A stretch of DNA of 32,434 nt from positions 1 through 32,434 of the forward strand of contig JANXTL010000121.1 of assembly GCA_025352375.1 (NCBI GenBank), read 5' to 3'. A model generated the notes under the pieces. The model saw only the letters and a program-made list of their open reading frames with translations. It was not told where the DNA came from and did not search any database. The position numbers and the translations under genes are program-made. Source of the stretch: Acetobacteraceae bacterium. Its GTDB lineage: Bacteria > Pseudomonadota > Alphaproteobacteria > Acetobacterales > Acetobacteraceae. This document shows positions 5,587 to 32,434 of the stretch, in pieces (within the stretch, counting starts at the first letter, position 1; the number at the start of each line of letters is the position of its first letter).

Positions 5587-7137
5587 ATGTTGCAAGCCGC
5601 CGACACGCTGCGTCAGGACAAAGCCTTTGACGCGCTCACCAGCGCGATCCTCGATCGCGACCCGGCGCGTACCGCGGACACCTTCTTCCGCATGGTCAAG
5701 GACGAAGGTCGATCCATCCCCCAAGCCGTCAGCGTCGTGATGGCGGCGGAGGCACCCTTCGTCCAGGTTCCCAATCATATCAACGTCAAAGACGGCCAAC
5801 TCGTGCTGGTCAACAACGATCATACCATTCTCGGCATCCGCACCTCCGCGGCCCTGATCCCCTATATGCCCAAGGGTTACGAGATGCTGCCGATGTTGCA
5901 AAGCGTCTGGTACATCACCGCCGGCCTCGACATCTGGAACCAGCTGCTGGGCAAATACCCCGGCCGCTACGCCAGCATGAAGGGCATGAATGTGCCGCCG
6001 CCGGATTACGGCCCGGTGGTATGGAACCAGGACCAGAAGCCCCTGCGGGAGGGCAATACGATCGAAGAACGCCTGTATAACCACATGCTTGCCACCATGG
6101 GCGGGGAGGTCGTGCGGTCCTATCGGCTTTTCCTCGATCTCGCGGCGGACCCCGACGCTCGGGACCAATTGCGCGATCAGATGATGTTCCTCGGGCTGAT
6201 CGACATCCAGGACACGATTTCCGGCCGCAAGGCTCGGAACACCGGCCACAAGGCGCTACGGGCACGCGCGATCACTGGCCTCGCGGATTACGTCGGCTGG
6301 GACAACGCCCACGGCGTTTTTTACACCGGCGTGCCGGACATGGCGATCGGGCCGCTTTACTACTCGGCCTACGACGCCGCCTGCGTCGTGCTGAATGAGG
6401 CATTCCCCGATGGCCACACGCACCTGCGGGAGGGAAATAAAATCCCGCTGAGCCCGGTCGAGGTCGAATCCTTTATCGACCTGCTGATGACCGGCACCGG
6501 CCCGGCGGTCTGGAACCAGCTGACCGAATATTTGAAGGTGGGCAAATCCATCCGCAGTCTGGGCGATACTATTCAAATTGCCGCCGCCGAACTGATCCTG
6601 CGCAATGTGGTCCCACGTAAGTTTACCGATGGGCAGCATCCGTTCGACTATTCCAACACCGCCAACCACTGGATCCGAACCAGCACCAGCCCCTACCAGC
6701 CGCGCATCCTGTATCTGATGGCGAATTTCGTGAACGATTCGTCGCAGGCCAATAAATGGTTCACCTCCGGCCTGAATGAAGAAATCGAAGGGTTTGACGG
6801 CAAGGGACGCTCGCCAGCGCAACTGCTAACGCAGCTTGATGAATCCATCATGTCGTTCGACATTGCCGGCAGCACCGCGGTCGCCAACGCCTATCTGCAA
6901 TCCGGCGCCGACGTGAAGGCCTATTTCTCGACCGTCGCGGTGACGGCCAGCAAGTTCCAGGATGACCCGCACAACCAGAAGATCACCCACTCGGCGATAC
7001 AGGAATACGAGAACAACAGCACCCACCTCAAGGATCGCTTACTGTTGGCAGCCGTTCGCCAACTCGCGGGATGGCCGAAAATGCCTGGGGAGCGGGACTG
7101 CTACGCCCGCTTCATGTCGGACTGGATCAAGCACTAA
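5587..7137 (+). CDS. Uncharacterised 516-aa soluble protein
   Basis: I do not recognise the family with confidence. The start at 5587 is preceded by a good GGGAGG site 6 bp upstream; the frame is open further left but overlaps the previous gene. The product has no signal peptide or membrane segment and looks mostly alpha-helical. Histidines recur in polar settings (for example VPNHIN, NNDHTI, YNHMLA, DGHTHLREGN, GQHPFDY), which would fit a metal or cofactor site, but no standard motif is met. A loose resemblance to the non-Rieske half of some large Rieske-type hypothetical proteins came to mind and could not be tested. It follows the DUF2339 gene by 73 bp on the same strand and may be cotranscribed with it. 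Codon use looks like that of its neighbours. Confidence 0.82.
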   Translation: MLQAADTLRQDKAFDALTSAILDRDPARTADTFFRMVKDEGRSIPQAVSVVMAAEAPFVQVPNHINVKDGQLVLVNNDHTILGIRTSAALIPYMPKGYEMLPMLQSVWYITAGLDIWNQLLGKYPGRYASMKGMNVPPPDYGPVVWNQDQKPLREGNTIEERLYNHMLATMGGEVVRSYRLFLDLAADPDARDQLRDQMMFLGLIDIQDTISGRKARNTGHKALRARAITGLADYVGWDNAHGVFYTGVPDMAIGPLYYSAYDAACVVLNEAFPDGHTHLREGNKIPLSPVEVESFIDLLMTGTGPAVWNQLTEYLKVGKSIRSLGDTIQIAAAELILRNVVPRKFTDGQHPFDYSNTANHWIRTSTSPYQPRILYLMANFVNDSSQANKWFTSGLNEEIEGFDGKGRSPAQLLTQLDESIMSFDIAGSTAVANAYLQSGADVKAYFSTVAVTASKFQDDPHNQKITHSAIQEYENNSTHLKDRLLLAAVRQLAGWPKMPGERDCYARFMSDWIKH

Positions 7138-8050: not shown

Positions 8051-9787
8051 ATGACTTCGCCAAACGCGCGCCCGATCGGCTGGCGAGAAGGAACCGCGTG
8101 CGCGCTGATCCCCGTCCTGATCGAGACAATCTCCTGTCTGAGCTTATCGGGTTTTCGGGATTTCGGCAGGTTCCTCGACCCGGACAGCTATATGCGGCTG
8201 GTGCGGCTGCGGGATATCGTCGCGGCGCACCGCCCTTTGCATATCGTGGCGAACGATGCCTCCGGCCATGGGACCATTCTGCATTGGTCGCATTTCCTCG
8301 ATAGTTTCATTCTGCTGCTGGCGATGCCGCTCGATTGGTTTATGCCGGTCGACACCGCCCAGCATGCCGCGGGCGTGCTGGTCGGCGTTTTGTCGGTCGC
8401 CGCGCTGGGCTATGCCTCCGCCTGGGCCGTCGCGCCGTTTGTCACGCGGGATTGGCGATGGATGGCACCGGTCGCGGCGATCCTCGCACCCGCGGTTTGG
8501 GGCTATGGGCTGGTCGGCGTGGTGCATCACCACATTCCCGTGGTGGTAGTCGCGGTGATGGGCTGGGGTTGGGCCGGACGCCTGATCGCGGGGTTCCCGG
8601 GCGGTGTTGCCCTCGGGGCCTGGGCCGCGGCCGGACTGTGGCTGACCCCGGAAGCTGTGCCCCTTTCATTGCTGGCATTCGGCGCGGTGTTCGTCGTGTG
8701 GGTGGAGCGCGGGGGCATCGGACCAGCGGCCGCGATCCGAGCGGCCGGTTTGACGCTGCTGGTTTTGACGGCCGCGGCTTGGTTGGTGGACCCGCCGGCG
8801 GATGGCCATAGGGCCGTGGAATTTGGCCGGCTCTCCATCGTTTTCGTCGGCGTCTCGGCCGTGTTCGCCGCACTTGGTTGCGCCTTGGTGCCGATCGACC
8901 GGCAGGCCCGAAACTGGGGTGGCAGGCTAATCGGCGCCAGTTTGGCGGGCATGGCCGCTTTCGGCCTGTGGTTGCTGTGCTTTCCGGCGGCATTGGACGG
9001 TTCCGCTTCGCTTATGAGCAACGCCGAATGGCATATCGTTTTCGACCACATCGTCGAAATGCAACCGGTTACGACCGTGACCGGTGCCATGTCGTATTTA
9101 TGTACCTCCTTCCTCGGTCTGTTATTTCTGGCTTGGCTGGCCCTTCGTCACCGATCGGTCGTGCTCGCCTATGCCTTTGTCGGCATGGCCGTGCTGATCG
9201 TATTCAGCGCAATGCATGTGCGCTTCTCCCCTTACCCCGAAGTCGCGGCCGCTCTTTTGGTTCCAGCGGTGCTGGACAGGGTCCGCCGGCAATGGCCGGT
9301 CGCCCGAATCGGGATTGTCGCTCTAATTCTGGTGGTGCCGCTCGCGGGTTTCGCGATTGACGGCGCGAAACAGGTCCAAACCGGCCCATCTTGCGAAATC
9401 GGCGGAATGTCCGATACGCTGGCCCAGTTCGGCGACGCCGTGGTGCTGGCCGACGTGAACATCACGCCGGAGCTGCTGTACCGAACCAGACTGAAAACGG
9501 TGGGATCGCTCTATTCCTTCAATCCCCGTGCCTTTCTGCGGTTGTGGGCCGCATGGCGCAGCCAGCCGGGAACTGCCGCGACCGATACGGCACCACCACC
9601 GCAAGTGCTGGCCACCGAGGCGACGCTGCTGATGTTTTGTCCAACGCCGGGACGGTCCTTGTTGGTCGCCGATTTGCCGGACGGCACCCTGATTGATTGG
9701 TTGAATCGGGGTCAAATCCCGCGCTGGCTGCACGAGGTCGCGCGCGATCCGAAATCCGGTAATATCGTCTACCGTATCGACCGGTGA
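8051..9787 (+). CDS. GT-C/STT3-like polytopic membrane protein
   Basis: The product is 578 aa with one N-terminal helix, then a soluble loop containing LDPDSYMRLVRLRDI, then about ten more hydrophobic segments and a C-terminal soluble region of about 150 aa. An acidic DxDxY(M)R-type loop after helix 1 is typical of GT-C glycosyltransferases and STT3/PglB-like oligosaccharyltransferases, which use polyprenyl-linked sugar donors at the outer face of the membrane. The start at 8051 has GGGAGA 4 bp upstream; the frame is open to 7655 but that part overlaps the divergent gene. No sugar-synthesis genes adjoin it, so donor and acceptor are unknown. The stop abuts the convergent transporter ATPase gene with no gap. 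Confidence 0.72.
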   Translation: MTSPNARPIGWREGTACALIPVLIETISCLSLSGFRDFGRFLDPDSYMRLVRLRDIVAAHRPLHIVANDASGHGTILHWSHFLDSFILLLAMPLDWFMPVDTAQHAAGVLVGVLSVAALGYASAWAVAPFVTRDWRWMAPVAAILAPAVWGYGLVGVVHHHIPVVVVAVMGWGWAGRLIAGFPGGVALGAWAAAGLWLTPEAVPLSLLAFGAVFVVWVERGGIGPAAAIRAAGLTLLVLTAAAWLVDPPADGHRAVEFGRLSIVFVGVSAVFAALGCALVPIDRQARNWGGRLIGASLAGMAAFGLWLLCFPAALDGSASLMSNAEWHIVFDHIVEMQPVTTVTGAMSYLCTSFLGLLFLAWLALRHRSVVLAYAFVGMAVLIVFSAMHVRFSPYPEVAAALLVPAVLDRVRRQWPVARIGIVALILVVPLAGFAIDGAKQVQTGPSCEIGGMSDTLAQFGDAVVLADVNITPELLYRTRLKTVGSLYSFNPRAFLRLWAAWRSQPGTAATDTAPPPQVLATEATLLMFCPTPGRSLLVADLPDGTLIDWLNRGQIPRWLHEVARDPKSGNIVYRIDR

Positions 9788-15978: not shown

Positions 15979-18138
15979 ATGTTGCAGATGGAACTGCCGG
16001 TCACCGGCTACCTCGACCGGTTCTCCCACCGGCCCGGCGAGGTTTTCACCGCCTTTGTGAGCCTGCGTGAGGGTTCGGCCTATCGGGCGCGCCTGGTACG
16101 CGTTATCGGCGGCGACCCCAATCCGGATGGGCCGGGCATGCGGTTGGAGGATCTGGCGCACCGCCTCGACCGCGCATGCGTCGGCGTACGGCAAGACATC
16201 GCATTGGGTTCGTACGCAACCATCCAATGTGGGCCAGCAGCCGGCCCGAATGCCCGACGCACCTGGAGCATCCTGGTGTGCCCGACCTTGCCGGGTACCG
16301 AAGGCACCGTGTTCTCCGAAGAGGCGGATGGCTGCCGCGTGTCGCTGTCCGTGTCGGGCGACGGCGCGGCTGCTCGCCTTCGTTGGCCGTCAGGTTCGGT
16401 GACGGTGACAACCAATGGCCGCATGCTGGCAAACCATTGGTACCGCGTGTGGGTTGGCGCCGATCCCGTCAGCGGGCAGGTCATTGTCGGCCAGCAGCCG
16501 CTCGATGGTGGCGCAGCGGTCTGCATGCGGGCTACCGCGTCCGGGCTGGAACTGCCGGACCGCGGCACAATTATGTTCGCGGCGGAAAACCCGGCCGCAC
16601 CGACGCATCATTTCACCGGCAAGCTGGAAGATCCGTCGATCCTGCGAGGCTGTGTCGAGGCGTGGCCTTCGCCGTTTACCGTTCTGGCAGCATGGGATTT
16701 CTCCCGCGACATTCCCAGCCAAACGGTAGTCGATACCGGCCCCGACGCCTGCCATGGCCAGCTGATCAATCTGCCCACCCGCGCGGTGGTCGGCGCCGCC
16801 TGGACCGGCTTGGAAATGTGCTGGCGGCACGCCCCGCGCGACTATGCCGCCATCCATTTCCATGCCGACGATCTCGGCGATTGCGAGTGGGAGCCAAGCT
16901 ACACCTGGAACGTGCCCGACGATTTGCCCAGCGGCGCCTACGCTTTTCATCTGACCTGCGAAAGCGGGGAGGATTTTCTGCCGTTCTATGTGCTGCCCAA
17001 GCGGGCGGGCCCCTTTGCTCCGATCGCGTTCCTGGCTTCGACGTTTACCTATCAGGCCTATGCCAATCACGCGCGCGGCAGCGCGGATGCCGCTTACCAG
17101 GATCGTGTCGGCGCCTGGGGGGCCTATCCCTACAATCCAGACCAATACCCCGCGTACGGGCGGTCGATGTACAACGTGCATCTGGACGGCAGCGGCATCG
17201 GGTTTTCCTCCCGCCTGCGCCCGATGCTGACCATGCGGCCGGGATTCCTGACGTTCAACGACGCGCGCGGGTCGGGATTGCGGCACTATCCGGCGGACAC
17301 GCATTTACTGGCCTGGCTGGATGCCAAGGGCATCGCATTCGACATCGTCACGGATGAAGACCTGGACGATGGCGGTGTGGAACTGTTGCGTCCCTACCGC
17401 GCCGTGCTGACCGGATCGCACCCGGAATACCACACGCCGCGGACGCTGGACGCGTTGGCCGCCTTCACCCATGGCGGCGGGCGGATGGCCTATCTCGGCG
17501 GCAATGGCTTCTACTGGCGGGTGGCACGCGACCCCGCGATGCCCTGGGCGATCGAGCTGCGTCGGGCCGAAGGCGGCGTTCGCACATGGGCCGCCGAACC
17601 GGGCGAATATTACCACCAGCTCGATGGCGCCTACGGCGGGCTATGGCGGCGCAACCGGCGGCCGCCGCAGATGCTGGCCGGCGTTGGATTCTCCGGCCAG
17701 GGACTGTTCGAGGGCACCCATTATCGGCTGCTGCCGGCGGCGCGGGATCCCGCATTCGCCTGGATGTTCGAGGGCATCGACGGTGATATACTGGGCGATT
17801 ACGGCCTGTCCGGCGGAGGCGCGGCGGGGTTTGAGATGGACCGCGCCGACCCCGCCTTGGGCACCCCCGACGGCACCGTGATTTTGGCGCGATCCGAGGA
17901 CCCGCCCGCGTCCTTCTTCACCGTCCCGGAAGAAGTGCTGGCGGGCCGTCGTACCGTATCCGGGGAACGGTTGGAGGATTTGATGCGGGCAGAAATCGTT
18001 TATTTCGAAACCGCGGGCGGCGGCGCGGTGTTCTCGGTCGGATCGATCACTTTCTGCGGCAGCCTGTGGCGCAACGGTTTCGAGGGACCGGTATCCCGGT
18101 TGCTAGAGAACATCGTTCGCAAGTTCGGCGCGCCATGA
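15979..18138 (+). CDS. N,N-dimethylformamidase beta-subunit-like amidohydrolase
   Basis: The product is about 719 aa. The first half is beta-rich and contains a LamG-like segment (about 180-280). The second half matches the dimethylformamidase large-subunit C-terminal domain: STFTYQAYAN (around 358), YGRSMYNVHLDG (393-404), RPYRAVLTGSHPEYHT with His481 and Glu483, and MAYLGGNGFYWRV. In the Paracoccus enzyme a mononuclear iron is held by two Tyr and one Glu of an HPE motif (from memory); candidate Tyr and HPE residues are all present. Such enzymes hydrolyse small amides. I see no gene for the usual small subunit nearby. The start is uncertain: 15979 or 15988, both with poor ribosome sites. It overlaps the next gene by ATGA and diverges from the transporter. 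Confidence 0.85.
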   Translation: MLQMELPVTGYLDRFSHRPGEVFTAFVSLREGSAYRARLVRVIGGDPNPDGPGMRLEDLAHRLDRACVGVRQDIALGSYATIQCGPAAGPNARRTWSILVCPTLPGTEGTVFSEEADGCRVSLSVSGDGAAARLRWPSGSVTVTTNGRMLANHWYRVWVGADPVSGQVIVGQQPLDGGAAVCMRATASGLELPDRGTIMFAAENPAAPTHHFTGKLEDPSILRGCVEAWPSPFTVLAAWDFSRDIPSQTVVDTGPDACHGQLINLPTRAVVGAAWTGLEMCWRHAPRDYAAIHFHADDLGDCEWEPSYTWNVPDDLPSGAYAFHLTCESGEDFLPFYVLPKRAGPFAPIAFLASTFTYQAYANHARGSADAAYQDRVGAWGAYPYNPDQYPAYGRSMYNVHLDGSGIGFSSRLRPMLTMRPGFLTFNDARGSGLRHYPADTHLLAWLDAKGIAFDIVTDEDLDDGGVELLRPYRAVLTGSHPEYHTPRTLDALAAFTHGGGRMAYLGGNGFYWRVARDPAMPWAIELRRAEGGVRTWAAEPGEYYHQLDGAYGGLWRRNRRPPQMLAGVGFSGQGLFEGTHYRLLPAARDPAFAWMFEGIDGDILGDYGLSGGGAAGFEMDRADPALGTPDGTVILARSEDPPASFFTVPEEVLAGRRTVSGERLEDLMRAEIVYFETAGGGAVFSVGSITFCGSLWRNGFEGPVSRLLENIVRKFGAP

Positions 18139-22247: not shown

Positions 22248-25094
22248 ATGACGCCGCAGGAATTCATCGCCAAATGGCAGGCCAGCACCCGCAATGAGCG
22301 CGCGGCGTGCCAGGAGCATTTCATCGACCTCTGCCACTTGCTGGAGGAGCCGACTCCTGGCTCCGATCCGACGGGGGAGAAGTATGCGTTCGAGAAGGGC
22401 GCCACCAAGTTTACCGGCGACGGCGGCTGGGCCGATGTTTGGAAGGCCGGGCATTTCGCGTGGGAGTACAAGAAGAAGCGCGGCGATCTGAACGCGGCGC
22501 ACCGGCAGTTGCTGCTGTATGCCGGCCCGCTGGGCAATCCGGCGCTGCTGATTGTGTCCGATATCGAGCGGATCGTGATCCGCACCAACTGGACGAACGC
22601 GGTCACCGAGACGCATGAAATCCTGCTGACCGAGTTGGCCAACCCGCTCCGGTTACGGTTGCTGAAATGGGCGTTTTCCGACCCCGAGCAATTGCGGCCG
22701 GCGCGGACTCGGCAGGCGCTGACGGAAGAAGCCGCGGCCGAGTTCGCTGACCTGGCTCGGCGGCTCCGAGAACGTGGGCACAATCCTCAAGTGGTGGCAC
22801 ATTTCGTCAACCGGCTGGTGTTTTGTTTTTTCGCCAATGACGTTGGGCTCCTGCCGAAGGGCCTGTTCGACCAGATGCTAGCGATGTCCAAGCGCCGTCC
22901 GACCAGAGCCGCTGACTTTATCGGCCAACTGTTTGGTGCCATGGCAAAAAGTGGCGGTATGGTCGGGTTTGTCGACGTGCCCTGGTTCAACGGTGGGTTG
23001 TTCGAAGACGGCGCCGCGCTACCGCTCGATGTAAAAGACATCGATATTCTGATCGGCGTCGGCAAGCTGCATTGGGCGGAGATCGACCCATCGGTGCTCG
23101 GCACGTTGTTCGAGCGGGGCCTGGATCCAGACAAGCGCAGTCAATTGGGAGCACACTACACTGATCGGGCCAAGATCGAGATGCTGATCGACCCGGTGAT
23201 TCGGCGACCCTTGCTCGCTGAGTGGGCGGAGGTGCGGGCCCGTATTGAAACTGCGCTGGCCCAATCGGCGCCTCGCGGACGGCGAGCGATGGATGGAAAA
23301 GACGCCGCGCAGGAACTGTACCATGGATATTTGCAGCGGCTGCGGAACTTCCGCGTGCTCGATCCCGCCTGCGGGTCCGGCAATTTCCTGTACGTGAGTT
23401 TGCAGGCGCTGAAGGATTTGGAGCATCGAGCCAGTGTAGAGGCGGAAACCCTTGGGCTGCAGCGTGAATTCCCGCAGGTCGGGCCGGAAACGATGCTCGG
23501 GATCGAGATCAACCCCTATGCGGCGGAGCTCGCTCGGGTTTCGGTGTGGATCGGACATATCCAGTGGACCCGATCTCATGGGTACGCGGCACCGTCCGAT
23601 CCTGTATTAAAGCCGTTGGACACGATCGAATGTCGGGACGCGATACTGACGCCTGACGGTAGGATGGCGGAATGGCCGAAGGCGGATGTTATTGTAAGTA
23701 ATCCCCCCTTCTTGGGCGACAAGGAGATGATTGGACGGTTAGGTGAGGAATACACCCAAGCATTGAGGCATGCCTACCGATCGAGGATTGCGTCGGCGGT
23801 CGATCTTGTATGTTACTGGTTTTTAAGAGCGTGGGACCAAATCGTATCCGGGTCGGCCCAACGAGTCGGGTTGGTTGCGACTCAGTCAATTCGCCGTGGT
23901 TCGAACCGGCAGGCATTGGAGCAAATCGCCAAGATCGGCGGGATATTCGACGCTTGGAGCGATGAGCCGTGGACCGTCGATGGCGCTGCCGTACGCGTTT
24001 CCCTGGTGTGTTTTGCCGAAGCCCCAGCGGACAGAATAACACTCAACAACCGGTCAGTACCAGTTATATACTCCGACCTTTCGGCAACTGGTGCAGACCT
24101 CACCACAGCGGCACGATTGACCGAGAATCGCGGCATATGCTTTCAGGGGCCTGTGAAAATCGGTGATTTCGATGTCCCTGGTGAAACAGCGCGGGCATGG
24201 CTGACAGCCCCTCTGAATCCGAATGGTAGGGGTAACTTGGACGTCGTACGACCGTGGGTGAACGGCCACGATCTGACGCAGCGGCCTTCGGACACTTGGA
24301 TTATCGACTTCTATGACATGTCGGAGACCGATGCTTCGTACTATGTGCAGCCATTTTCATGGGTGAAGACACACGTAAAGCCGGCTCGGGATAAAAACAG
24401 GCGAGATAAGCGACGACTTTGCTGGTGGAAGCACGGGGAGACAGTACCGGGCCTTCGCAATGCCGCTGCTGAAGTAGAACGATTCATCGCGACGTCGCGA
24501 GTTGCTAAACATCGCATTTTCGTTTGGTGCGATGCTACAACACTGCCGGATAGCCGTGTATATGCGTGGATGCGTGCGGACGACGTCTTTTTGGGCATCC
24601 TGCACAGTCATGTACACCAAATCTGGACGCTGGCGCTCGCCTCGCGTCATGGCGTTGGGAATGATCCCACCTACAACAGCCGGACTTGTTTCGAAACATT
24701 CCCATTCCCCGAACACTTAACCCCCAACCTTCCAGCCGCGTCCTATGCCGACAACCCGCACGCCCAGGCCATCGCCATAGCCGCCCGGGACCTCGTGGAG
24801 AAACGCGACCTCTGGCTCAACCCGCCGGACCTCACCGAACGTGTGCCGGAGGTCGTGCCCGGCTACCCCGACCGGATCGTCCCTCGTGACGCCAAAGCGG
24901 CTGCCACCCTGAAAACCCGCACCCTAACAAACCTCTACAACACACGCGGCACGCCGGAGGGCACCTGGCTCGACGCGCTCCATCGCGTCTTGGACGAAGC
25001 CGTTGCCGCCGCTTACGGCTGGCCGGCCGATCTTCCGGACGACGAAATACTGGCGCGCCTGCTCGCTCTCAATCAGGCACGCCAGCCGAAGTAG
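22248..25094 (+). CDS. MmeI-like type IIL restriction-modification enzyme (fused nuclease-methyltransferase)
   Basis: The 948-aa product has MmeI-like domain order. An N-terminal nuclease (about 1-160) carries GWADVWKAGHFAWEYKKK, a D-x9-ExK-type PD-(D/E)xK site. A helical spacer follows, then a gamma-class adenine methyltransferase with motif X GAHYT (about 300), motif I VLDPACGSGNF (about 370) and motif IV NPPF (about 483). A target-recognition region spans about 620-825 and a C-terminal domain ends the chain. Such enzymes methylate one strand and cut at a distance, alone. Sampled GC is about 62-65% in the 5' third, falls to 43-53% through much of 23700-24700, and jumps to 70% at 24721. This suggests an exchanged methyltransferase/recognition segment. 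It is divergent from the fadB-like gene. Cleavage activity is inferred from the intact motif. Confidence 0.88.
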   Translation: MTPQEFIAKWQASTRNERAACQEHFIDLCHLLEEPTPGSDPTGEKYAFEKGATKFTGDGGWADVWKAGHFAWEYKKKRGDLNAAHRQLLLYAGPLGNPALLIVSDIERIVIRTNWTNAVTETHEILLTELANPLRLRLLKWAFSDPEQLRPARTRQALTEEAAAEFADLARRLRERGHNPQVVAHFVNRLVFCFFANDVGLLPKGLFDQMLAMSKRRPTRAADFIGQLFGAMAKSGGMVGFVDVPWFNGGLFEDGAALPLDVKDIDILIGVGKLHWAEIDPSVLGTLFERGLDPDKRSQLGAHYTDRAKIEMLIDPVIRRPLLAEWAEVRARIETALAQSAPRGRRAMDGKDAAQELYHGYLQRLRNFRVLDPACGSGNFLYVSLQALKDLEHRASVEAETLGLQREFPQVGPETMLGIEINPYAAELARVSVWIGHIQWTRSHGYAAPSDPVLKPLDTIECRDAILTPDGRMAEWPKADVIVSNPPFLGDKEMIGRLGEEYTQALRHAYRSRIASAVDLVCYWFLRAWDQIVSGSAQRVGLVATQSIRRGSNRQALEQIAKIGGIFDAWSDEPWTVDGAAVRVSLVCFAEAPADRITLNNRSVPVIYSDLSATGADLTTAARLTENRGICFQGPVKIGDFDVPGETARAWLTAPLNPNGRGNLDVVRPWVNGHDLTQRPSDTWIIDFYDMSETDASYYVQPFSWVKTHVKPARDKNRRDKRRLCWWKHGETVPGLRNAAAEVERFIATSRVAKHRIFVWCDATTLPDSRVYAWMRADDVFLGILHSHVHQIWTLALASRHGVGNDPTYNSRTCFETFPFPEHLTPNLPAASYADNPHAQAIAIAARDLVEKRDLWLNPPDLTERVPEVVPGYPDRIVPRDAKAAATLKTRTLTNLYNTRGTPEGTWLDALHRVLDEAVAAAYGWPADLPDDEILARLLALNQARQPK

Positions 25095-25414: not shown

Positions 25415-25912
25415 ATGCAAGCCATCGTCCGCCCCTCCGGCCAACTCGTTGTCCGCGACCGCATATACCGCGCGGCGATCGGCGCACACGGCGTGCTGAT
25501 ACATAAGGAGGAAGGGGACGAAGCCACCCCCGCCGGGTTGCTTCCCTTGCGCCGCGTCTTGTATCGCGCCGACCGGGTTCCGCCGCCGCGATGCGCCGTG
25601 CCGCTGGAGCCGATCGGCCGCGACGACGGGTGGTGCGACGATCCATACTCACGCGATTACAACAAGATGATCCGCCTGCCGCACGACGATCGGCACGAGG
25701 AACTTTGGCGCAAAGACGGCCTCTACGACATCGTCGGCGTGTTGGGGTGGAACGACCGCCCCATTCAGAAAAAGCGCGGGTCGGCAATCTTCCTGCATGT
25801 CGCGCGCCCGGATTATGCGCCCACACAGGGTTGCGTCGCGTTGTCGCTGCCGGACCTCCGCGCCGTACTGGCGGCAGGCGTGACGGAACTGCTGGTGTTG
25901 GATATGCGGTAA
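25415..25912 (+). CDS. L,D-transpeptidase (YkuD) family protein
   Basis: The 165-aa product is a minimal YkuD domain. IFLHVARPDYAPTQGCVALS holds the catalytic His128 and Cys140 in the H-x(n)-GC motif. DEATPAGLLPLRRV is the N-terminal ExATPxG block. Such enzymes form 3-3 peptidoglycan crosslinks or attach lipoproteins. No signal peptide or membrane anchor is seen, which is odd for a periplasmic role. The ATG at 25415 has AAGG 8 bp upstream. The last 100 bp overlap the convergent amidohydrolase gene. Confidence 0.9.
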   Translation: MQAIVRPSGQLVVRDRIYRAAIGAHGVLIHKEEGDEATPAGLLPLRRVLYRADRVPPPRCAVPLEPIGRDDGWCDDPYSRDYNKMIRLPHDDRHEELWRKDGLYDIVGVLGWNDRPIQKKRGSAIFLHVARPDYAPTQGCVALSLPDLRAVLAAGVTELLVLDMR

Positions 25913-26802
25913 AAAGCCAACGCGTTTTCCGCGAACAGTTTTCGCCGCGCGGCCTCCGGCATATCGGCCGTCACCATCTTGAACTGGCAGAAAATCCAGT
26001 CCCAGCTTGCCTTCACCCCATCCACCGGGTGGTTGGAGGCGAACATGCAACGGTCCGCCCCGAACATCGAAATGGTGTCGCGGATGATCTCGCCGTGCAT
26101 CGCCAGCGTCCAGGGCTTGCCCTTCACGGTGAAGCCGGAGATTTTGCACCAAACATTGGGGCAAGCTGCCAGTGCCTCCATGCCCTTACGCCATATCGCG
26201 ACTTGTTCCGGGGAACGATCCAGCGGGTAGCCGGTGTGGTTCAGCACGATCCGCATGGCCGGATGTTCGCGGCAGACCTCCGCCGCTTCTTCCAGGTGGT
26301 ACCATGGAACTCGCAAATCCCACGACAGGTCGTATTTCTCCAACAGCGCCAAGCCCTTGCGCCATTTCGGGTCCTGCAGGCTGCGGGGCTGGCCACGTAC
26401 GCTGTCGCCGGGGCCGGAGGCGATGATGGGCTTGGTGCGAATGCCGCGCACCAGCGGGAAGCGCTTGTGGCCGGCCAGGATTTCCTCGGAGTGCGGCGTA
26501 TCCACCCATACATGCGCCACGATCGCGTTGGGCATGCCGTGTTCGGCCGCCATGCGCGTGACCCATTCGGTTTCGGCCAGTTGCTGGGAGCGATCGCACT
26601 CGGCTTCGATATGAACGGTGGCGATGACGTTGTGCAACGCCGTGTCGCGGCGGTATTCCGGTGGCAGATACGACCGGCAAATGCGGGAATAATCGCCGAG
26701 GAACCCGTGATCTCCCGTTTCGAGCCAGGGGTATCGGATAGGGCCGTCCAGGTCCCACAGGTGGTGATGGGCGTCGGCGATCGGCAGCTCGTCGTCGGTC
26801 AT
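25813..26802 (-). CDS. Amidohydrolase (PF04909 TIM-barrel metal-dependent hydrolase)
   Basis: The 329-aa product has the N-terminal HxH metal motif in IADAHHHLWDL (His12, His14), a strand-end His in MRIVLNHTG, and MFASNHPVDG at the C-terminal barrel end. In that last motif Asn stands where many relatives have the metal-ligand Asp, but an SNxPVD form is, from memory, usual in this subgroup (L-fuconolactonase/2-pyrone-dicarboxylate-lactonase-like, COG3618). The family-like sequence ends at AFYRI. The last 30 residues (SNTSSSVTPAAS onward) are antisense to the L,D-transpeptidase gene, suggesting a lost stop. Its ATG overlaps the upstream LLM oxidoreductase stop (ATGA), so the two act together. 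Substrate unknown. Confidence 0.88.
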   Translation of the reverse strand: MTDDELPIADAHHHLWDLDGPIRYPWLETGDHGFLGDYSRICRSYLPPEYRRDTALHNVIATVHIEAECDRSQQLAETEWVTRMAAEHGMPNAIVAHVWVDTPHSEEILAGHKRFPLVRGIRTKPIIASGPGDSVRGQPRSLQDPKWRKGLALLEKYDLSWDLRVPWYHLEEAAEVCREHPAMRIVLNHTGYPLDRSPEQVAIWRKGMEALAACPNVWCKISGFTVKGKPWTLAMHGEIIRDTISMFGADRCMFASNHPVDGVKASWDWIFCQFKMVTADMPEAARRKLFAENALAFYRISNTSSSVTPAASTARRSGSDNATQPCVGA

Positions 26803-27824
26803 GGCGTGTTATTCTCCCGAAATTCAGGCATCACTTCCTTGCCGAAAATGCGTAATGCCTCTCGCGAACCACCGACATCCATCAACAGCATATAGCGGAT
26901 CCCCGCGGCTTCGTACACCCGCAGACGAGCAATGATTTCCTCGGGCGTGCCGATCAGCGCATCGGTTTCGGTCATGCGGCGCATGTCGGCCTCGTCGCCG
27001 TGGCCCTGGAAATGATTTCCTTCCACCGGTCCGGATGGCGGCAGCGACAATTCCTGCACATTCTTCATGAAGCGGATGCGTAACTCGTGCTGGCGGTTCC
27101 GTTCCTCCGGCGTATAGCAAACGTGCAGCGCGCGCGTGACCCCGGCCGAGAAGGGATCGTAGATCCGCCCGGTCTGTTCCACGGCATCGCGGAAAATTGC
27201 GACCTTTTCGCCCACGGCCTCGGGCGTGCCGTGCTGCGCGATCAGCAGGTTCATGCCGTCGTTCGCGGTCTTGATAATCGACGCCGCGCTGTTGGCGCCG
27301 ATCCACAGCGGGGGGTGCGGGCGTTGCAGCGGTGCCGGCTCCACCACCACGTCGTCGTAGTTCCAATACGGACCGCGATGCGAAAAGCGGCCCGGCGTCG
27401 TCCACGCTTTGCGGATGAACGCCAGGCATTCCCGATACCGAGCCTCGGCCTCGTCCATGGACATGTGGAAGCCGTGAAATTCGTTGTAGCGGTAGCCGCG
27501 CCCCACCCCGAGGTCCAAGCGGCCGCCGGAAAGCACGTCAACCGTTGCCGCCTGTTCGGCGAGCAAAGCCGGGTTGTGCCAGGGCAGTACCAGCACGGCG
27601 GTGCCGAGGCGCATGCGTTTGGTCCGCGCCGCCAGGAACGACAGCAGGTTGAGCGACGCCGACACCTGGCCAAAGCCGGTAAAATGGTGCTCCACCAGGA
27701 ATACACTCTCGAACCCGAGTTCCTCGGCTTCCACCACGTAATCGATGAAATCGTGCAGCTGCTGGCTGTCGCTGGGCTGGTCGCCCACGGACGTGCGGGC
27801 GCCACCGAAAAGTCCGAAGCGCAT
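26799..27824 (-). CDS. LLM-class (luciferase-like) flavin-dependent monooxygenase 1
   Basis: The 341-aa product is a full-length bacterial luciferase-fold (PF00296) enzyme: MRFGLFGGAR start, FLVEHHFTGFG, LGTAVLVLPWHNPALLAEQ, and VLSGGRLDLGVGRGY, all typical blocks. It would use reduced FMN or F420 from a partner reductase and O2. The ATG at 27824 has GGGGAG 6 bp upstream. It is coupled by ATGA to the amidohydrolase downstream and is divergent from a second LLM gene 68 bp away. The window has one flavin reductase candidate far to the left (the nitroreductase), but no dedicated partner. Substrate unknown. Confidence 0.9.
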   Translation of the reverse strand: MRFGLFGGARTSVGDQPSDSQQLHDFIDYVVEAEELGFESVFLVEHHFTGFGQVSASLNLLSFLAARTKRMRLGTAVLVLPWHNPALLAEQAATVDVLSGGRLDLGVGRGYRYNEFHGFHMSMDEAEARYRECLAFIRKAWTTPGRFSHRGPYWNYDDVVVEPAPLQRPHPPLWIGANSAASIIKTANDGMNLLIAQHGTPEAVGEKVAIFRDAVEQTGRIYDPFSAGVTRALHVCYTPEERNRQHELRIRFMKNVQELSLPPSGPVEGNHFQGHGDEADMRRMTETDALIGTPEEIIARLRVYEAAGIRYMLLMDVGGSREALRIFGKEVMPEFRENNTP

Positions 27825-27892
27825 TGTGTCTCCCCTCTGGACGAAACGCCGGCAAAGCGTCACGGTTCGACGATAGAATTGGGAGAACGACC

Positions 27893-28717
27893 ATGCAACT
27901 CGGGATCCATTTGCCGCATATCGGTCGCAAAGCGGGGCCGGACTCCATCCGCCGGGTGGCGATGCAGGCCGAGGAACTGGGTTTGTCCGACGTATGGGTC
28001 AGCGAGCACATCATCGTGCCGAAGGATGGCGGCTACCCGCCGTCGCCCAATTTCTGGGACCCGGTGCTGACCCTCACCTGGGCCGCTGCCTGCACCAGCC
28101 GCGTCCGACTCGGCACGTCCGTGCTGGTGTTGCCGCTGCGGCATCCGTTGCCGTTGGCAAAGGAACTGGCGACGCTGCACAACCTGTCGAACGGACGCCT
28201 GATCCTGGGCGGCGGCGTCGGCTGGCTGGAGGCGGAGTTCAACGCACTCGGCGTTCCCTTTAAGGAGCGAGGTCGCCGCATGGACGAAGGCATCGCCATG
28301 ATGCGCGCCGTATGGACGCAGGACCCGGTAACATTCCCAACGAAATATATCCCGGCCGAAATCGAGAACATGCGGTCCCAACCGCAGCCGATCTCGCACA
28401 TTCCCATCTGGATTGGCGGATCCTCCGACGCCGCCATTGCCCGCGCCCAGCGCAACGACGGCTGGCACGGCAGCCGCGTGAAGCCGGAAGGGGCGGCGGA
28501 CATGGTAAAGCGCTTGCGCGCCGGCCGGCCCGACGAAGACTGGATCATTTCGCTGCGGGTGAACATCGACGCCGCCAACGTTGACGAAATGAAAACCGCG
28601 CTCGCGATATATCGCGACGCCGGGGTGCAGCATGTGATGGCCGCGCCGGAAGATCGCGACATCGACACATACATGCGGACTGTGGAACGGTTCGCCCGTG
28701 TTGGCGAAGGGCTGTAG
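27893..28717 (+). CDS. LLM-class flavin/F420-dependent oxidoreductase 2
   Basis: The 274-aa product is shorter and of a different LLM subgroup than its divergent neighbour: MQLGIHLPHIG, SDVWVSEHIIVP, RVRLGTSVLVLPLRHPL, LSNGRLILGGGVGW and IPIWIGGSSDAA. It resembles the F420-associated LLM families (TIGR03619-type), though FMN use is equally possible. The ATG at 27893 has GGGAGA 6 bp upstream. It leads a tight rightward operon with two amidohydrolases (6-bp gap, then ATGA overlap). Confidence 0.9.
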   Translation: MQLGIHLPHIGRKAGPDSIRRVAMQAEELGLSDVWVSEHIIVPKDGGYPPSPNFWDPVLTLTWAAACTSRVRLGTSVLVLPLRHPLPLAKELATLHNLSNGRLILGGGVGWLEAEFNALGVPFKERGRRMDEGIAMMRAVWTQDPVTFPTKYIPAEIENMRSQPQPISHIPIWIGGSSDAAIARAQRNDGWHGSRVKPEGAADMVKRLRAGRPDEDWIISLRVNIDAANVDEMKTALAIYRDAGVQHVMAAPEDRDIDTYMRTVERFARVGEGL

Positions 28718-28723
28718 GAGGTC

Positions 28724-29776
28724 ATGACCGCACTCCCTCCAGGCGCCATCGACTGCGACCTCCACGTCACCGTCCCCAACATGGCGGCGTTGCTGCCGTA
28801 CATGAGCGAAGCGTGGCGGGAGATGATTGTCTCCCGCGGCACCGACGGGCTGGAGCTGGCGAGCTACCCGAAGGATGCGCCGATCGCCTGCCGCCCCGGC
28901 TGGCGGCCGGCCGGCGATCTGCCTTGGCTCCAGAAGCACGCGCTGGACGGGTTCGGGACCAGCCGAGCGATCCTGACCTGCCTGCATGGGGGGCAAGCGG
29001 TGCATTCGGAGGATTTGGCGCAGGCGCTGTGCGGCGCGGTGAACGACTGGTTGATCGATCATTGGCTGAATAAAGACGAGCGCCTGCGTGCCGGCATCGT
29101 GGTACCCTTCCAAAGTCCCCTTTACGCGGCGGCGGAGATCGAAAAACGCGCCGCCGACCAACGCTTCGTCCAAGTACAGCTTCTCGCATCCGGAGAAATG
29201 CTGCTCGGCCGCCGCTATTACTGGCCGATCTATGAGGCGGCGGTGAAACACGACCTCCCCATCGCAATCCACGCCGGCAGCGCGTACCGGCATGCGCCGA
29301 CGTCGGTTGGCTGGCCGTCGCATTTCACACAAGACTACGTGCACCAGACGATGGCGTTCGAGGCGCAGCTGCTCAGCCTGATGGGGGAGGGCGTGTTCAA
29401 CCATTTCCCGACGCTGAAGGTCGTGCTGCTGGAGTCCGGCGTGACCTGGCTTCCGGCCTTCTTGTGGCGCGCCATCAAGTCCTGGCGCGGTCTGCGCGGC
29501 GAAACCCCATGGTTCACCCAATCCCCCGGCGACCTGGTGCGTCAGCACGTGCGGCTGACCGCGCAGCCGTTCGACGCGCCGGGCGCCGCCGAGGTGGAAC
29601 GCATTGTCGAACACATCGGCGGCGATCATATGCTATTATTCGCCACCGATTTTCCCCACCACCACTTCGAGGGGACCGACTCCCTGCCCCCCGGCCTGTC
29701 GGCCGAAGCGATCCGCAAGATGGCCATCGACAACCCGATGGAAACGTACCCGCGCCTCAAGGAGACTCTACCATGA
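28724..29776 (+). CDS. Amidohydrolase, ACMSD-like family, 1
   Basis: The 350-aa TIM-barrel hydrolase/decarboxylase has the N-terminal metal motif IDCDLHV (Asp12, His14), a strand His in LPIAIHAGS, and the C-terminal LLFATDFPHHHFEG with the catalytic Asp. It belongs to the PF04909 group that includes aminocarboxymuconate-semialdehyde decarboxylase and related ring-cleavage enzymes. GGAGG lies 3 bp before the ATG. Its stop overlaps the next start (ATGA). The neighbouring paralogue shares the same order of motifs, so the pair probably arose by tandem duplication and may form a heteromer. Confidence 0.9.
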   Translation: MTALPPGAIDCDLHVTVPNMAALLPYMSEAWREMIVSRGTDGLELASYPKDAPIACRPGWRPAGDLPWLQKHALDGFGTSRAILTCLHGGQAVHSEDLAQALCGAVNDWLIDHWLNKDERLRAGIVVPFQSPLYAAAEIEKRAADQRFVQVQLLASGEMLLGRRYYWPIYEAAVKHDLPIAIHAGSAYRHAPTSVGWPSHFTQDYVHQTMAFEAQLLSLMGEGVFNHFPTLKVVLLESGVTWLPAFLWRAIKSWRGLRGETPWFTQSPGDLVRQHVRLTAQPFDAPGAAEVERIVEHIGGDHMLLFATDFPHHHFEGTDSLPPGLSAEAIRKMAIDNPMETYPRLKETLP

Positions 29777-30876
29777 GCGATGTCCTGGAACGCCCCAATG
29801 ACGAAACGACGGGGGCCGTGAAAGCGGGCATCGTCGACTGCGACATCCACCCGACGATGAAGTCGAAGTCGGAGCTATATCCCTGGCTGGCGGAGCGCTG
29901 GCGCAAACATCTGGCGGAGTATGGAGCGCAACCGAGGGTGCCGTTTACCACGGGCACGCAATATCCCAAGGCCGCGCCCGCCACGGCCCGTCGCGACGCC
30001 TGGCCACCGAATGGAGGGCCGCCGGGGTCCGATCTGGCCTTCATGCAGGCGCAGTTGCTGGACGCGAACGACATTGCGCTGGGCATTCTGGCACCGCTGT
30101 CGGGGGCCGCGCGCAACACCGATCTCGGCGCGGCTTACTGCCATGCAGTGAACGAGTGGCAGATTGAAAACTGGGTAAAGCCGGAGCCGCGGCTGCGTGC
30201 GTGCGTCACCGTCGCCCATGAGGACTCTGACCTGGCAGTCGAGGAAATCTCCCTGCGCGCCGGCGATCCGAATTTCGTCCAGGTGCTAATGCCGTCGAAG
30301 ACGAATGAACCGTTGGGACGCAAGCGATACTGGCCGATCTACGCCGCCGCGCAGGCGTCGAACTTCCCCATAGCCATCCATGTGAACAGCGTCGGCGGCG
30401 GCTATGCCTCCACTCCCGGCGGCTGGCCGAGCTATTATTTGCAGGACCACCACATCAACGTGCACAGCTTCCAGGCGCAGGTTGCCTCGCTGGCGCTGGA
30501 GGGCGTGTTCGAAGAATTTCCTCGGTTGCGCTTCCTGATGATTGAGGGCGGCTTCGCCTGGCTGCCGTCTTTGTGCTGGCGGCTTGACAAGCAATGGGCG
30601 CTGAACCGCGATGAGCTGCCTCGGTGCAAGCGCCCGCCGTCGGAATACATCCGGGAAAGCATGTGGTTCACCACCCAGCCGATGGAGGAACCCGAACACG
30701 CCGAACATTTGCGGGATACGCTGGGCTGGATCGGCTGGGACCGGGTGTTGTTCGCCACCGACTACCCGCATTGGGATTACGATGACCCACGCGGCGCCTT
30801 CCCCATTCGGTTGAGCAACGCCGAGCACACCATGGTGTTCCGGGACAATGCCATGGGGTTGTACGGGCTGACCTGA
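29773..30876 (+). CDS. Amidohydrolase, ACMSD-like family, 2
   Basis: The 367-aa paralogue of the preceding gene has IVDCDIHPTM (Asp24, His26), FPIAIHVNS, and LFATDYPHWDYDDP with the catalytic Asp. It has about 12 extra N-terminal residues and a longer WPPNGGPPGSD loop. AGGAGA lies 7 bp before the ATG, inside the end of the preceding gene. It is the last gene of the rightward LLM-amidohydrolase group; 75 bp separate it from the aminotransferase. All metal ligands look intact in both copies. Confidence 0.9.
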   Translation: MSDVLERPNDETTGAVKAGIVDCDIHPTMKSKSELYPWLAERWRKHLAEYGAQPRVPFTTGTQYPKAAPATARRDAWPPNGGPPGSDLAFMQAQLLDANDIALGILAPLSGAARNTDLGAAYCHAVNEWQIENWVKPEPRLRACVTVAHEDSDLAVEEISLRAGDPNFVQVLMPSKTNEPLGRKRYWPIYAAAQASNFPIAIHVNSVGGGYASTPGGWPSYYLQDHHINVHSFQAQVASLALEGVFEEFPRLRFLMIEGGFAWLPSLCWRLDKQWALNRDELPRCKRPPSEYIRESMWFTTQPMEEPEHAEHLRDTLGWIGWDRVLFATDYPHWDYDDPRGAFPIRLSNAEHTMVFRDNAMGLYGLT

Positions 30877-30951: not shown

Positions 30952-32031
30952 GTGACCGAAATCGCCATCACCCGCACCGCCACGCCCAAACAGCCCCCGG
31001 CCGATGAGACGCTGACGTTCGGAACGGTCTTCACCGACCACATGTTCATGATGGAGTACCATGAGGGGCAGGGCTGGCACGACCCGCGCATCGTTCCCTA
31101 CGCGCCGTTCAGCATGGATCCGGCCACCTGCGTGCTGCACTACGGGCAGGCGGTCTTCGACGGATGCAAGGCGTTCCGCGGCGCCGACGGGCAGATCCGC
31201 CTGTTTCGCCTGAAGGATCATGCGGCCCGCTTGAATAAGTCCGGCCATTACCTCTGCATGCCGGAGATTGACCCGGCACTGGTCGAGGAATCGATCCGGG
31301 CGCTGGTGGAGGTCGACCAGCATTGGGTGCCGAAAAAGGCGGGCACATCTTTATACGTGCGTCCGACCATCATCGCGACCGAGGCGTTCCTGGGCGTGCA
31401 CCCGTCGCATTCGTATTTGTACTACGTGATCCTTTGCCCGGTGGGTGCTTACTACAAGGAAGGCATGAACCCGGTGCGCATCCTGGCCTCCGACACACAT
31501 GTGCGGGCGGTTAAAGGCGGGTTGGGCGCGGCGAAAACCGCCGGCAACTACGCCGCGTCGCTGTTCGGCGCCGAGGAAGCGCAGAAGGCCGGCTACACCC
31601 AGGTGCTGTGGCTGGACGGCGTTGAGCACAAATACCTCGACGAGGTCGGCACCATGAACATCATGGTCAAGATCGGTGACGAGGTGATCACCCCGCCGCT
31701 GAACGGTGCGATCCTGGCCGGGGTGACACGTGACTCCGTGCTGACGTTGCTGCGGTCCTGGGGCTTGCGCGCGTCGGAGCGGCAGGTCTCCATCGATGAG
31801 GTCCTTGCCGCCGCGAAGGCCGGGAATTTGGAAATGTGGGGCACCGGCACCGCCGCCGTGATCTCCCCGGTTGGGGAGCTTGGTTACAAAGGCGAGCGCT
31901 ACATTATCGGCGACGGCAAGACAGGCGCGCTGACGCAAAAGCTGTACGACACCATCGTGGGGATCCAGTACGGCACCGAAGCCGATCCGCACGGCTGGAC
32001 CCGGCTGCTGGGGAACCGCATCGGGGGGTGA
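30952..32031 (+). CDS. ilvE: Branched-chain amino acid aminotransferase
   Basis: The 359-aa fold-type IV PLP enzyme transfers amino groups between Leu/Ile/Val and 2-oxoglutarate. The catalytic Lys195 lies in GGLGAAKTAGNYAAS, the known PLP-lysine block. CVLHYGQAVFDGCKAFRG, SLYVRPTIIATEAFLGV and the C-terminal EMWGTGTAAVISPVG are typical of the longer ilvE type II group (about 350 aa). The start is GTG at 30952, with only a weak GAGA about 8 bp upstream; the N-terminal 25 residues are variable in the family. No attenuator-like leader peptide rich in branched-chain codons is seen in the 75-bp gap. Confidence 0.93.
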   Translation: MTEIAITRTATPKQPPADETLTFGTVFTDHMFMMEYHEGQGWHDPRIVPYAPFSMDPATCVLHYGQAVFDGCKAFRGADGQIRLFRLKDHAARLNKSGHYLCMPEIDPALVEESIRALVEVDQHWVPKKAGTSLYVRPTIIATEAFLGVHPSHSYLYYVILCPVGAYYKEGMNPVRILASDTHVRAVKGGLGAAKTAGNYAASLFGAEEAQKAGYTQVLWLDGVEHKYLDEVGTMNIMVKIGDEVITPPLNGAILAGVTRDSVLTLLRSWGLRASERQVSIDEVLAAAKAGNLEMWGTGTAAVISPVGELGYKGERYIIGDGKTGALTQKLYDTIVGIQYGTEADPHGWTRLLGNRIGG

Positions 32032-32059: not shown

Positions 32060-32105
32060 GACAGCGTCGGCGTTTGGTCGGCGCGGAGCAGGCTCCGATG
32101 CTGTC
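32060..32105 (+). promoter_or_regulatory. 11-bp RNA stem enclosing the start codon of the AlbA_2 gene
   Basis: GACAGCGTCGG (32060-32070) can pair with CCGATGCTGTC (32095-32105) over all 11 positions, one as G-U in RNA. The right arm contains the ATG at 32098. The loop holds the GGAG ribosome site, which can itself form an alternative 6-bp hairpin, CGGAGC/GCTCCG (32084-32097). Either structure would hinder initiation. Regulation is inference. Confidence 0.4.
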
Positions 32106-32434
32106 AGACGACGACCTCCGCCGCTATCTGCGCGATTTGGAAGCCGACAATGTCGAGCGAACGTCCGGTATCGCCGACAAGGAAAAGTTCGGCCAGGCGA
32201 TTTGTGCGTTTGGGAACGATCTGCCGAACCGGGGCGACACCGGTGTGCTGTTCGTCGGCGTTCGGGATAACGGCGATTGCGCGAATCTCGCGGTCGACGA
32301 GCGGCTCATTCAAACGCTCGCCGGATTTCGGTCCGATGGGTCCATCACGCCATTTCCTGTCATGCATGTCCGCAAACACACTTTAGATGGTTGTACGATG
32401 GCCATCGTCGAGGTCGCACCGTCCGACAACCCAC
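32098..32434 (+). CDS. AlbA_2 (Schlafen-type) domain protein, N-terminal part
   Basis: The frame is open from ATG 32098 to the window end (112 codons, incomplete). MLSDDDLRRYLRDLEADNVE then KEKFGQAICAFGNDLPN and TGVLFVGVRDNG follow the AlbA_2 pattern (PF04326, formerly divergent AAA-4), with E..R..K near the N-terminus, an ICAFGNDLPN helix and the GxLxxGVxDxG strand. Such domains bind nucleic acid and occur in regulators and anti-phage proteins. GGAG lies about 9 bp upstream, within a predicted stem-loop. The C-terminal domains that would tell its role lie outside the window. Confidence 0.8.
   Translation, partial: MLSDDDLRRYLRDLEADNVERTSGIADKEKFGQAICAFGNDLPNRGDTGVLFVGVRDNGDCANLAVDERLIQTLAGFRSDGSITPFPVMHVRKHTLDGCTMAIVEVAPSDNP

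What the first reader, a model, noticed from the sequence alone, without database searches (positions are those of the whole stretch)
25813..30876. Mirrored LLM monooxygenase-amidohydrolase modules
Two LLM flavin oxidoreductases of different subgroups diverge from a 68-bp gap, each coupled to amidohydrolase genes (one leftward, two rightward) by ATGA overlaps or 6 bp. LLM oxygenation followed by amidohydrolase ring opening, hydrolysis or decarboxylation is a sensible catabolic logic, and no standard pathway I know has exactly this set. It is the best candidate here for an undescribed degradation route, possibly with the distant amidase, transporter and beta-oxidation genes.
Basis: partly seen in the sequence, partly recalled or inferred. 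Interest (0 to 1): 0.5.

Follow-up and report, generated by a model that had tools for sequence, protein, structure and literature searches.

The report
Metal oxygenase pair beside flavin enzymes
Two of the three supposed ring-opening hydrolases are most likely the two halves of a recently discovered kind of metal oxygenase, and their branch of that family repeatedly sits beside luciferase-like flavin enzymes.

Summary
The five genes, the 68-bp divergent gap and the overlaps are real. The chemistry given to the right half is probably wrong. AH2 (28724-29776) and AH3 (29773-30876) match AibH1 and AibH2, the heteromeric Mn/Fe C-H hydroxylase of Rhodococcus (E 6e-79 and 2e-96). AH3 keeps all six dinuclear metal ligands and Asp342; AH2 is AibH1-type. 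They are best read as an amidohydrolase-related dinuclear oxygenase (ARO), not hydrolases. The left half, LLM1-AH1, remains a plausible oxidoreductase-hydrolase operon. The locus is a mosaic: relatives carry LLM2 near IlvE with LLM1-AH1, with AH2-AH3, or with AH1 alone, so one five-gene pathway is unlikely. The LLM-ARO link still exceeds controls: the window pair's clade has an LLM gene within 5 kb at 8 of 10 loci, against 2 of 51 other AH3-type genes of the same genus. No Rieske ferredoxin, the family's usual electron carrier, was found beside any of the 10 (4 cut short by contig ends), but 31 of the 51 controls lack one too. LLM partners are mostly non-orthologous between lineages. Substrate and electron donor are unknown. 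Verdict: new variant of a known kind, worth testing.

The parts
25813..26802 (-). AH1: PF04909 amidohydrolase of the fuconolactonase-like branch; inferred lactonase/hydrolase. Its last 33 codons overlap YkuD
   Evidence: Pfam 120.6 bits; NF052480 89.8 bits against cut-off 400; nearest solved chain 4dlf E 9e-14 with HxH kept and the late Asp replaced by Asn; G009, G001 and G016 orthologues end two residues after FYRI
26799..27824 (-). LLM1: luciferase-like flavin/F420 oxidoreductase, 4-bp overlap with AH1
   Evidence: PF00296 217 bits; TIGR03619 151.3 bits, below cut-off 166.9; LLM1-AH1 kept in G009 and G001
27825..27892 (.). 68-bp divergent intergenic gap
   Evidence: no sigma-70-type consensus found; G009 has the same divergent pair with a 69-bp gap
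27893..28717 (+). LLM2: TIGR03619-type LLM oxidoreductase found in most genomes of the genus
   Evidence: TIGR03619 212 bits over cut-off 166.9; match at E<=1e-50 in 30 of 33 genus genomes; next to IlvE in G016 and G009, one gene away in G001
28724..29776 (+). AH2: AibH1-type (non-catalytic) subunit of an ARO
   Evidence: 6m1w_A E 5.8e-79; position 342 is H/Q/R in 95 of 95 AH2-type rows; groups with AibH1
29773..30876 (+). AH3: AibH2-type catalytic subunit, all six dinuclear metal ligands plus Asp342
   Evidence: 6m1w_B E 2.1e-96; ligands kept in the family; groups with AibH2
30952..32031 (+). IlvE branched-chain aminotransferase, flanking housekeeping gene that marks where AH2-AH3 sits
   Evidence: NF009897 455.5 bits; next to LLM2 without AH2-AH3 in G016 and G009
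25415..25912 (+). YkuD L,D-transpeptidase, convergent with and overlapping AH1
   Evidence: PF03734; orthologue at this locus in G009, G001 and G003

Best explanation
AH2 and AH3 encode the two subunits of an AibH1H2-type amidohydrolase-related dinuclear oxygenase (ARO). AH3 carries an O2-activating Mn/Fe (or Fe2) centre; AH2 is the AibH1-like partner. Together they hydroxylate a C-H bond of an unknown small molecule, with electrons supplied from elsewhere because no Rieske ferredoxin lies beside them. LLM2 probably acts in the same small pathway, before or after the hydroxylation. LLM1-AH1 is a separate operon in which an LLM oxidoreductase feeds a lactonase-type hydrolase. The locus was assembled from separately gained or lost blocks around LLM2 and IlvE. 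Shown: homology, ligand conservation, pairing, mosaicism, LLM enrichment. Inferred: oxygenase activity, metal identity, co-transcription, substrate class, every reaction step.
For: AH2 and AH3 match AibH1 and AibH2 by more than 200 bits over any decarboxylase listed. In 102 AH3-type rows the six AibH2 ligands are kept apart from one N-terminal gap, and Asp342 in 102; in 95 AH2-type rows position 342 is H (18), Q (76) or R (1). AH2-type with AibH1, and AH3-type with AibH2 and SfbO, fall on two sides of a branch with support 100/99 (53 of 200 sequences used). 86 of 90 AH3 genes have AH2 directly upstream. Activity and ligands of AibH2: PMC7782822 and PMC10401708, sections read. Mosaic locus. LLM enrichment: 8 of 10 loci against 2 of 51, unchanged with an HMM trained without the clade.
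Against: No activity or metal data. The usual adjacent Rieske gene was not found here or at the nine orthologous loci, so the electron route is unknown; 31 of 51 control genes lack one too, so its absence is not special to this clade. LLM partners are mostly non-orthologous between lineages, which one fixed pathway would not predict. LLM2 has other neighbours in most genomes. The enrichment test ignores shared descent (ten loci, six lineages), and the control loci are themselves LLM-poor (2 in 405 kb against about 1 per 56 kb genome-wide).
Confidence: 0.8

Rival explanations
1. One reading: one undescribed route in which LLM oxygenation is followed by hydrolysis, ring opening or decarboxylation by three amidohydrolases, all five genes acting together.
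For: Tight coupling in the window; LLM1-AH1 kept in two relatives; AH1 has a hydrolase-type HxH motif.
Against: AH2/AH3 are AibH1/AibH2-type with oxygenase ligands. The full set was found in none of the other 32 genus genomes; blocks occur separately in G003, G009, G001 and G016.
Confidence: 0.08
2. Ordinary Rieske-driven ARO: AH2-AH3 works with one of the genome's other small Rieske ferredoxins in trans, and the LLM neighbours reflect repeated landing in flavoenzyme-rich catabolic regions.
For: The genome has 19 PF00355 matches, including Rieske genes beside other ARO genes at C311 and C111. Four other AH3-type genes of this genome and 31 of 51 control AH3 genes of the genus also lack an adjacent Rieske. 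LLM genes are very abundant (91).
Against: Other AROs of the genus do not show the LLM neighbours: 2 of 51, and 0 of the 31 without a Rieske.
Confidence: 0.5
3. The AH pair is a degenerate or non-redox PF04909 enzyme that only resembles AROs.
For: No activity known; the ligand residues are also present in AibH1, which binds a single metal (PMC7782822).
Against: Asp342 in 102 of 102 AH3-type rows against 0 of 95 AH2-type rows; dN/dS 0.026 for AH3 and 0.058 for AH2 against G003; SfbO and three other candidate AROs hold redox-active diiron centres (PMC10811679).
Confidence: 0.08

Closest known systems
AibH1H2GF, 2-aminoisobutyrate monooxygenase of Rhodococcus wratislaviensis
   Same: Two adjacent PF04909 genes, AibH1-type then AibH2-type; six dinuclear ligands and Asp342 in the second
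   Different: No adjacent AibG (Rieske) or AibF (reductase); an LLM gene instead; no aib-cluster gene families among the window genes
SfbO and other candidate AROs (PDB 8sm6-8sm9)
   Same: Same ligand set and fold family; those candidates were picked by adjacency to a Rieske gene (PMC10811679)
   Different: Described there as single proteins; the window enzyme belongs to the paired AibH1/AibH2 branch and has no Rieske neighbour
TIGR03619 (Rv2161c-type) F420 LLM oxidoreductases
   Same: LLM2 scores over the cut-off; the genome encodes CofD
   Different: No cofactor tested; LLM1 is below the cut-off
L-fuconolactonase-like amidohydrolases (4dlf)
   Same: AH1 full-length similarity, HxH motif
   Different: Far below the NF052480 cut-off; late Asp is Asn in AH1. 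That 4dlf is a lactonase is recalled, not from a call

Membership tests
Amidohydrolase-related dinuclear oxygenase (ARO, AibH2-like) | Six metal ligands of AibH2 (D25, H27, H211, E265, D337, H340) | tested here: met
   Window AH3 in the alignment; 102 AH3-type rows with one N-terminal gap as the only exception
Amidohydrolase-related dinuclear oxygenase (ARO, AibH2-like) | Second-sphere Asp342, whose mutation lowers AibH2 activity (PMC10401708) | tested here: met
   DYPHWD in AH3; 102 of 102 AH3-type rows
Amidohydrolase-related dinuclear oxygenase (ARO, AibH2-like) | Adjacent small Rieske ferredoxin (common, 90% in PMC10401708, not defining) | tested here: not met
   0 of 10 for the window pair and nine orthologous loci, 4 of the 10 cut by contig ends; no PF00355 match on the window contig C345
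Amidohydrolase-related dinuclear oxygenase (ARO, AibH2-like) | Dinuclear Mn/Fe or Fe2 centre and O2-dependent C-H hydroxylation | not testable with these tools
   needs purified protein
AibH1H2 heteromer | AibH1-type partner gene directly upstream | tested here: met
   AH2 matches 6m1w_A and groups with AibH1; 86 of 90 AH3 genes paired
Aib catabolic system (aib cluster) | AibG, AibF, AibD1, AibE, AibC neighbours | tested here: not met
   None of these families among the window genes scanned by Pfam; no Rieske on C345
TIGR03619 F420-type LLM | Score over curated cut-off 166.9 | tested here: inconclusive
   LLM2 212 bits, met; LLM1 151.3 bits, not met
TIGR03619 F420-type LLM | Host makes F420 | tested here: inconclusive
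   CofD (TIGR01819) 308.7 bits over cut-off 257.45 at C62; the only gene of the pathway tested
L-fuconolactonase NF052480 | Score over curated cut-off 400 | tested here: not met
   AH1 89.8 bits

The most novel reading that the evidence does not exclude
The window pair represents an ARO clade, seen only in this genus, that works with luciferase-like flavin/F420 enzymes instead of a dedicated Rieske ferredoxin. Either reduced-flavin or F420 chemistry feeds the Mn/Fe oxygenase, or LLM and ARO carry out coupled successive oxidations, with different LLM subfamilies filling the role in different lineages.
Probability: 0.2. Interest if true: 0.65.

Novelty: new variant of a known kind. Interest (0 to 1): 0.45.

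Why it matters
Genes that Pfam calls amidohydrolases are numerous in this genome (42 PF04909 matches), and several are probably O2-activating metal oxygenases. Reading them as hydrolases would send pathway work the wrong way. An ARO clade linked to LLM enzymes and without a Rieske neighbour gives a concrete test of how these enzymes get their electrons, and offers new enzymes for C-H hydroxylation.

Tried and rejected
Rejected: one mirrored pathway, because the blocks occur separately. LLM2 as a stable ARO partner, because it is found in 30 of 33 genus genomes while its neighbours vary. A statistical claim from adjacency alone, because about 1.6 pairs are expected by chance. The idea that loss of the Rieske neighbour marks this clade, because 31 of 51 controls lack it too; for this I lowered the novel case from 0.25 to 0.2 and raised the Rieske-in-trans rival to 0.5 on re-checking. 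Rieske detection by a strict motif failed (0 of 73) because many of these ferredoxins have a longer spacing; tblastn replaced it. The pairing counts are unreliable because ORFs there begin at the first start codon; one search is used. Control loci L231 and L237 show that LLMs can lie near other AROs. I first took a 289-aa gene in G001 for LLM2; it is a solute-binding-protein gene between IlvE and LLM2. Promoter/terminator scan gave nothing above shuffles. Paper searches on a heterodimeric amidohydrolase, an LLM-amidohydrolase cluster, and the genus with these families gave nothing on point. Structure prediction was not run.

Rows dropped: proteins under 320 aa and identical copies, AH3 ORFs under 250 aa and copies. 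The 40 extra control loci were same-genus AH3 relatives taken roughly in rank order from the list (about 49-56% identity), a list that was itself cut. In the first control set two of 14 loci came from other genera of the family; all controls are from the genus.
Full report
WHAT IS THERE. The anatomy in the finding is correct: AH1 25813-26802 (-), LLM1 26799-27824 (-), a 68-bp gap, LLM2 27893-28717 (+), AH2 28724-29776 (+), AH3 29773-30876 (+), then IlvE 30952-32031 (+). Pfam gives PF00296 for both LLMs and PF04909 for all three AHs. The window is one contig (C345) of a 5.1-Mb, 98%-complete draft genome of an Acetobacteraceae genus, judged from the record titles of its nine closest matches (one of them bears the name Nitrosovibrio and one Asaia). 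That genome has 42 PF04909 and 91 PF00296 matches, so an AH next to an LLM is not rare by chance: about 1.6 expected with an assumed 4,700 genes, 3 counted within 500 bp.

WHAT AH2 AND AH3 ARE. The best solved relatives are AibH1 for AH2 (6m1w_A, E 5.8e-79) and AibH2 for AH3 (6m1w_B, E 2.1e-96); decarboxylases score far lower. AibH1H2 is the hydroxylase of the Rhodococcus 2-aminoisobutyrate monooxygenase (PMC7782822: abstract and sections 7 and 8 read). It needs manganese and has a redox-active Mn/Fe site in AibH2 (PMC10401708: abstract, section 7 and part 1 of section 6 read). The class is called amidohydrolase-related dinuclear oxygenases, AROs (PMC10811679: parts 1 and 2 of 3 read). A 2025 review says AibH1 more likely has a structural role and that AibH2 homologues do not always occur with AibH1-like proteins (PMC12141560, passages only). 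On an alignment of 197 family members plus three PDB chains, the six AibH2 ligands are kept in the 102 AH3-type rows apart from one N-terminal gap, and Asp342 in all 102. In the 95 AH2-type rows the ligand positions are nearly always kept (5 N-terminal gaps, two substitutions), but position 342 is H, Q or R. A tree of 53 of those 200 sequences puts AH2-type with AibH1 on one side of a branch and AH3-type with AibH2 and SfbO on the other, support 100/99; the tool warns of long branches for the three PDB chains. Of 90 AH3 genes in the window, the named loci L021-L100 and six other own-genome loci, 86 have AH2 directly upstream, 29 with a 4-bp overlap. The pair is best read as a heteromeric oxygenase.

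THE LOCUS IS A MOSAIC. In G016 the order is AH1 divergent from LLM2-IlvE, with no LLM1 there. In G009 it is IlvE-LLM2 divergent, over a 69-bp gap, from LLM1-AH1, followed by a Vgb_lyase gene and then YkuD on the other strand. G001 is alike but has a solute-binding-protein gene between IlvE and LLM2 and an MFS transporter gene before LLM1. In G003, YkuD and LLM2 end one contig, and the end of LLM2, AH2, AH3 and IlvE begin another; the two ends share 141 identical bases, so the order is very probably YkuD-LLM2-AH2-AH3-IlvE without LLM1 and AH1. AH2-AH3 between LLM2 and IlvE is thus seen only in this genome and G003, and LLM1-AH1 comes and goes independently. In the window the Vgb_lyase gene is missing and AH1 runs on into YkuD antisense. 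LLM2 matches at E<=1e-50 in 30 of 33 genus genomes; in most of the other LLM2 loci read, neither IlvE nor an AH stands next to it (neighbours named include MoCF, GNAT-NUDIX, GMC and enolase-family genes).

AH1 ELSEWHERE. In four genomes (G010, G026, G029, G023) an AH1 orthologue (75-79% identity) lies upstream of one or two SDR genes, a 105-109-aa Rieske-type ferredoxin gene and another AH2-AH3-type pair, though in G010 an opposite-strand gene intervenes (Pfam on the G010 copies). AH1 thus has an ARO link elsewhere, with a different ARO clade. The own genome keeps a Rieske gene 70% identical to that ferredoxin and the start of an AH2-type gene at C111, and an AH3-type gene of that clade at C262. 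LLM1-AH1 coupling has a parallel: an LLM1-family gene is followed by a 270-273-aa PF04909 gene in five genomes (L164, L178, L183, L184, L188), divergent from another LLM in each. That protein is only distantly related to AH1. The remaining LLM1-family loci show no gene similar to it; in L177 the following gene is a racemase-family one, and a 270-aa gene beside the LLM in L182 has no Pfam match.

RIESKE NEIGHBOURS. A Rieske ferredoxin lies within 3 kb for 73 of 74 AH3 genes in L030-L100, which are mostly Bradyrhizobium and so not independent. It was found for 0 of 10 in the window clade, where 6 of the 10 have enough flanking DNA by my criterion and 4 are cut short. This is not special to the clade: four other AH3-type genes of the own genome and 31 of 51 control AH3 genes of the genus also show none.

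LLM NEIGHBOURS. 8 of 10 clade loci have an LLM gene within 5 kb (10 LLM genes in 76.8 kb), against 2 of 51 other AH3 genes of the genus (2 in 405 kb); Fisher p 6.4e-7. Against the own genome's average of one LLM per 56 kb, about 1.35 would be expected (Poisson p 1.6e-6, on the 75.8 kb); the controls are themselves LLM-poor. One search, with an HMM trained without clade loci and looser thresholds, finds the same LLM loci; counted over whole loci it adds three distant LLMs in L157 and one truncated LLM in control L163. Misses in the clade: L157 (G003), whose LLM2 is cut by the contig end, and L022 (G023), a 6-kb contig. Without the window and its sister G003, 7 of 8 loci have an LLM. On a quick tree I group the ten into six lineages, G000/G003, G032, G014/G031, G023/G026, G022 and G004/G007; each has at least one LLM. 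The test does not correct for shared descent.

THE PARTNERS DIFFER. LLM2 and a 280-aa LLM in G026 are both over the TIGR03619 cut-off but 31% identical. G031 has an NtaA/DmoA-type enzyme and G014 a 98% identical one. G007 and G004 share an LLM (84% identical); in G007 a flavin reductase gene follows it. G032 and G022 have other PF00296 proteins. The LLM is on the same strand in five lineages, opposite in G004/G007, where G004 has a second LLM on the same strand. Some lie up to 4 kb away with other genes between. Non-orthologous partners argue against one fixed pathway and for either an interchangeable role or repeated landing in LLM-rich regions.

MECHANISM. Most likely AH3 activates O2 at a dinuclear centre and hydroxylates a small molecule, with AH2 as structural partner (inferred from AibH1H2). 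LLM2, which may use F420 (CofD present), acts on the same compound before or after (inferred). LLM1 feeds AH1, a lactonase-like hydrolase (inferred; AH1 has Asn where its solved relative has Asp). Electron supply to AH3 is unknown: a Rieske ferredoxin in trans is the simplest answer, flavin-based supply the boldest.

NOVELTY. AROs are known. Searches listed no paper on an LLM link of AROs; the words luciferase and LLM do not occur in the main texts of the two JACS papers, nor luciferase in the review. The library holds open-licence papers only, so this is weak evidence of absence.

Noticed in passing
G000 whole genome: 91 PF00296 and 42 PF04909 matches in one 5.1-Mb Acetobacteraceae genome, a large load of luciferase-like enzymes.
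   Followed up: partly
25813-25912: AH1's 3' end overlaps convergent YkuD by 100 bp; G009 and G001 have a Vgb_lyase gene between them, so a deletion probably removed it together with AH1's own end.
   Followed up: partly
G000 C131, C279, C344 (L161-L163): AH3-type genes without a directly adjacent AH2-type partner and without a Rieske gene.
   Followed up: no
G000 C2 (L164) and L178, L183, L184, L188: A paralogous mirrored module: two divergent LLM genes, one followed by a small PF04909 gene.
   Followed up: partly
L145-L148: AH1 orthologue with SDR, Rieske ferredoxin and another AH2-AH3 pair in four genomes, a likely ARO pathway of its own.
   Followed up: partly
window 22248-25094: Type IIG restriction enzyme-methyltransferase (PADLOC 991 bits, MmeI-type domains).
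   Followed up: partly
window 15979-18138: Protein with an N,N-dimethylformamidase beta-like C-terminal domain, divergent from an Opp-type transporter gene run.
   Followed up: no
window 32098-32434: Start of a Schlafen/AlbA_2-domain gene cut by the window end.
   Followed up: no
window 5587-7137 and 8192-9787: Two long genes without Pfam or PADLOC match, near a DUF2339 membrane protein gene; relatives of all three lie together in G016.
   Followed up: no
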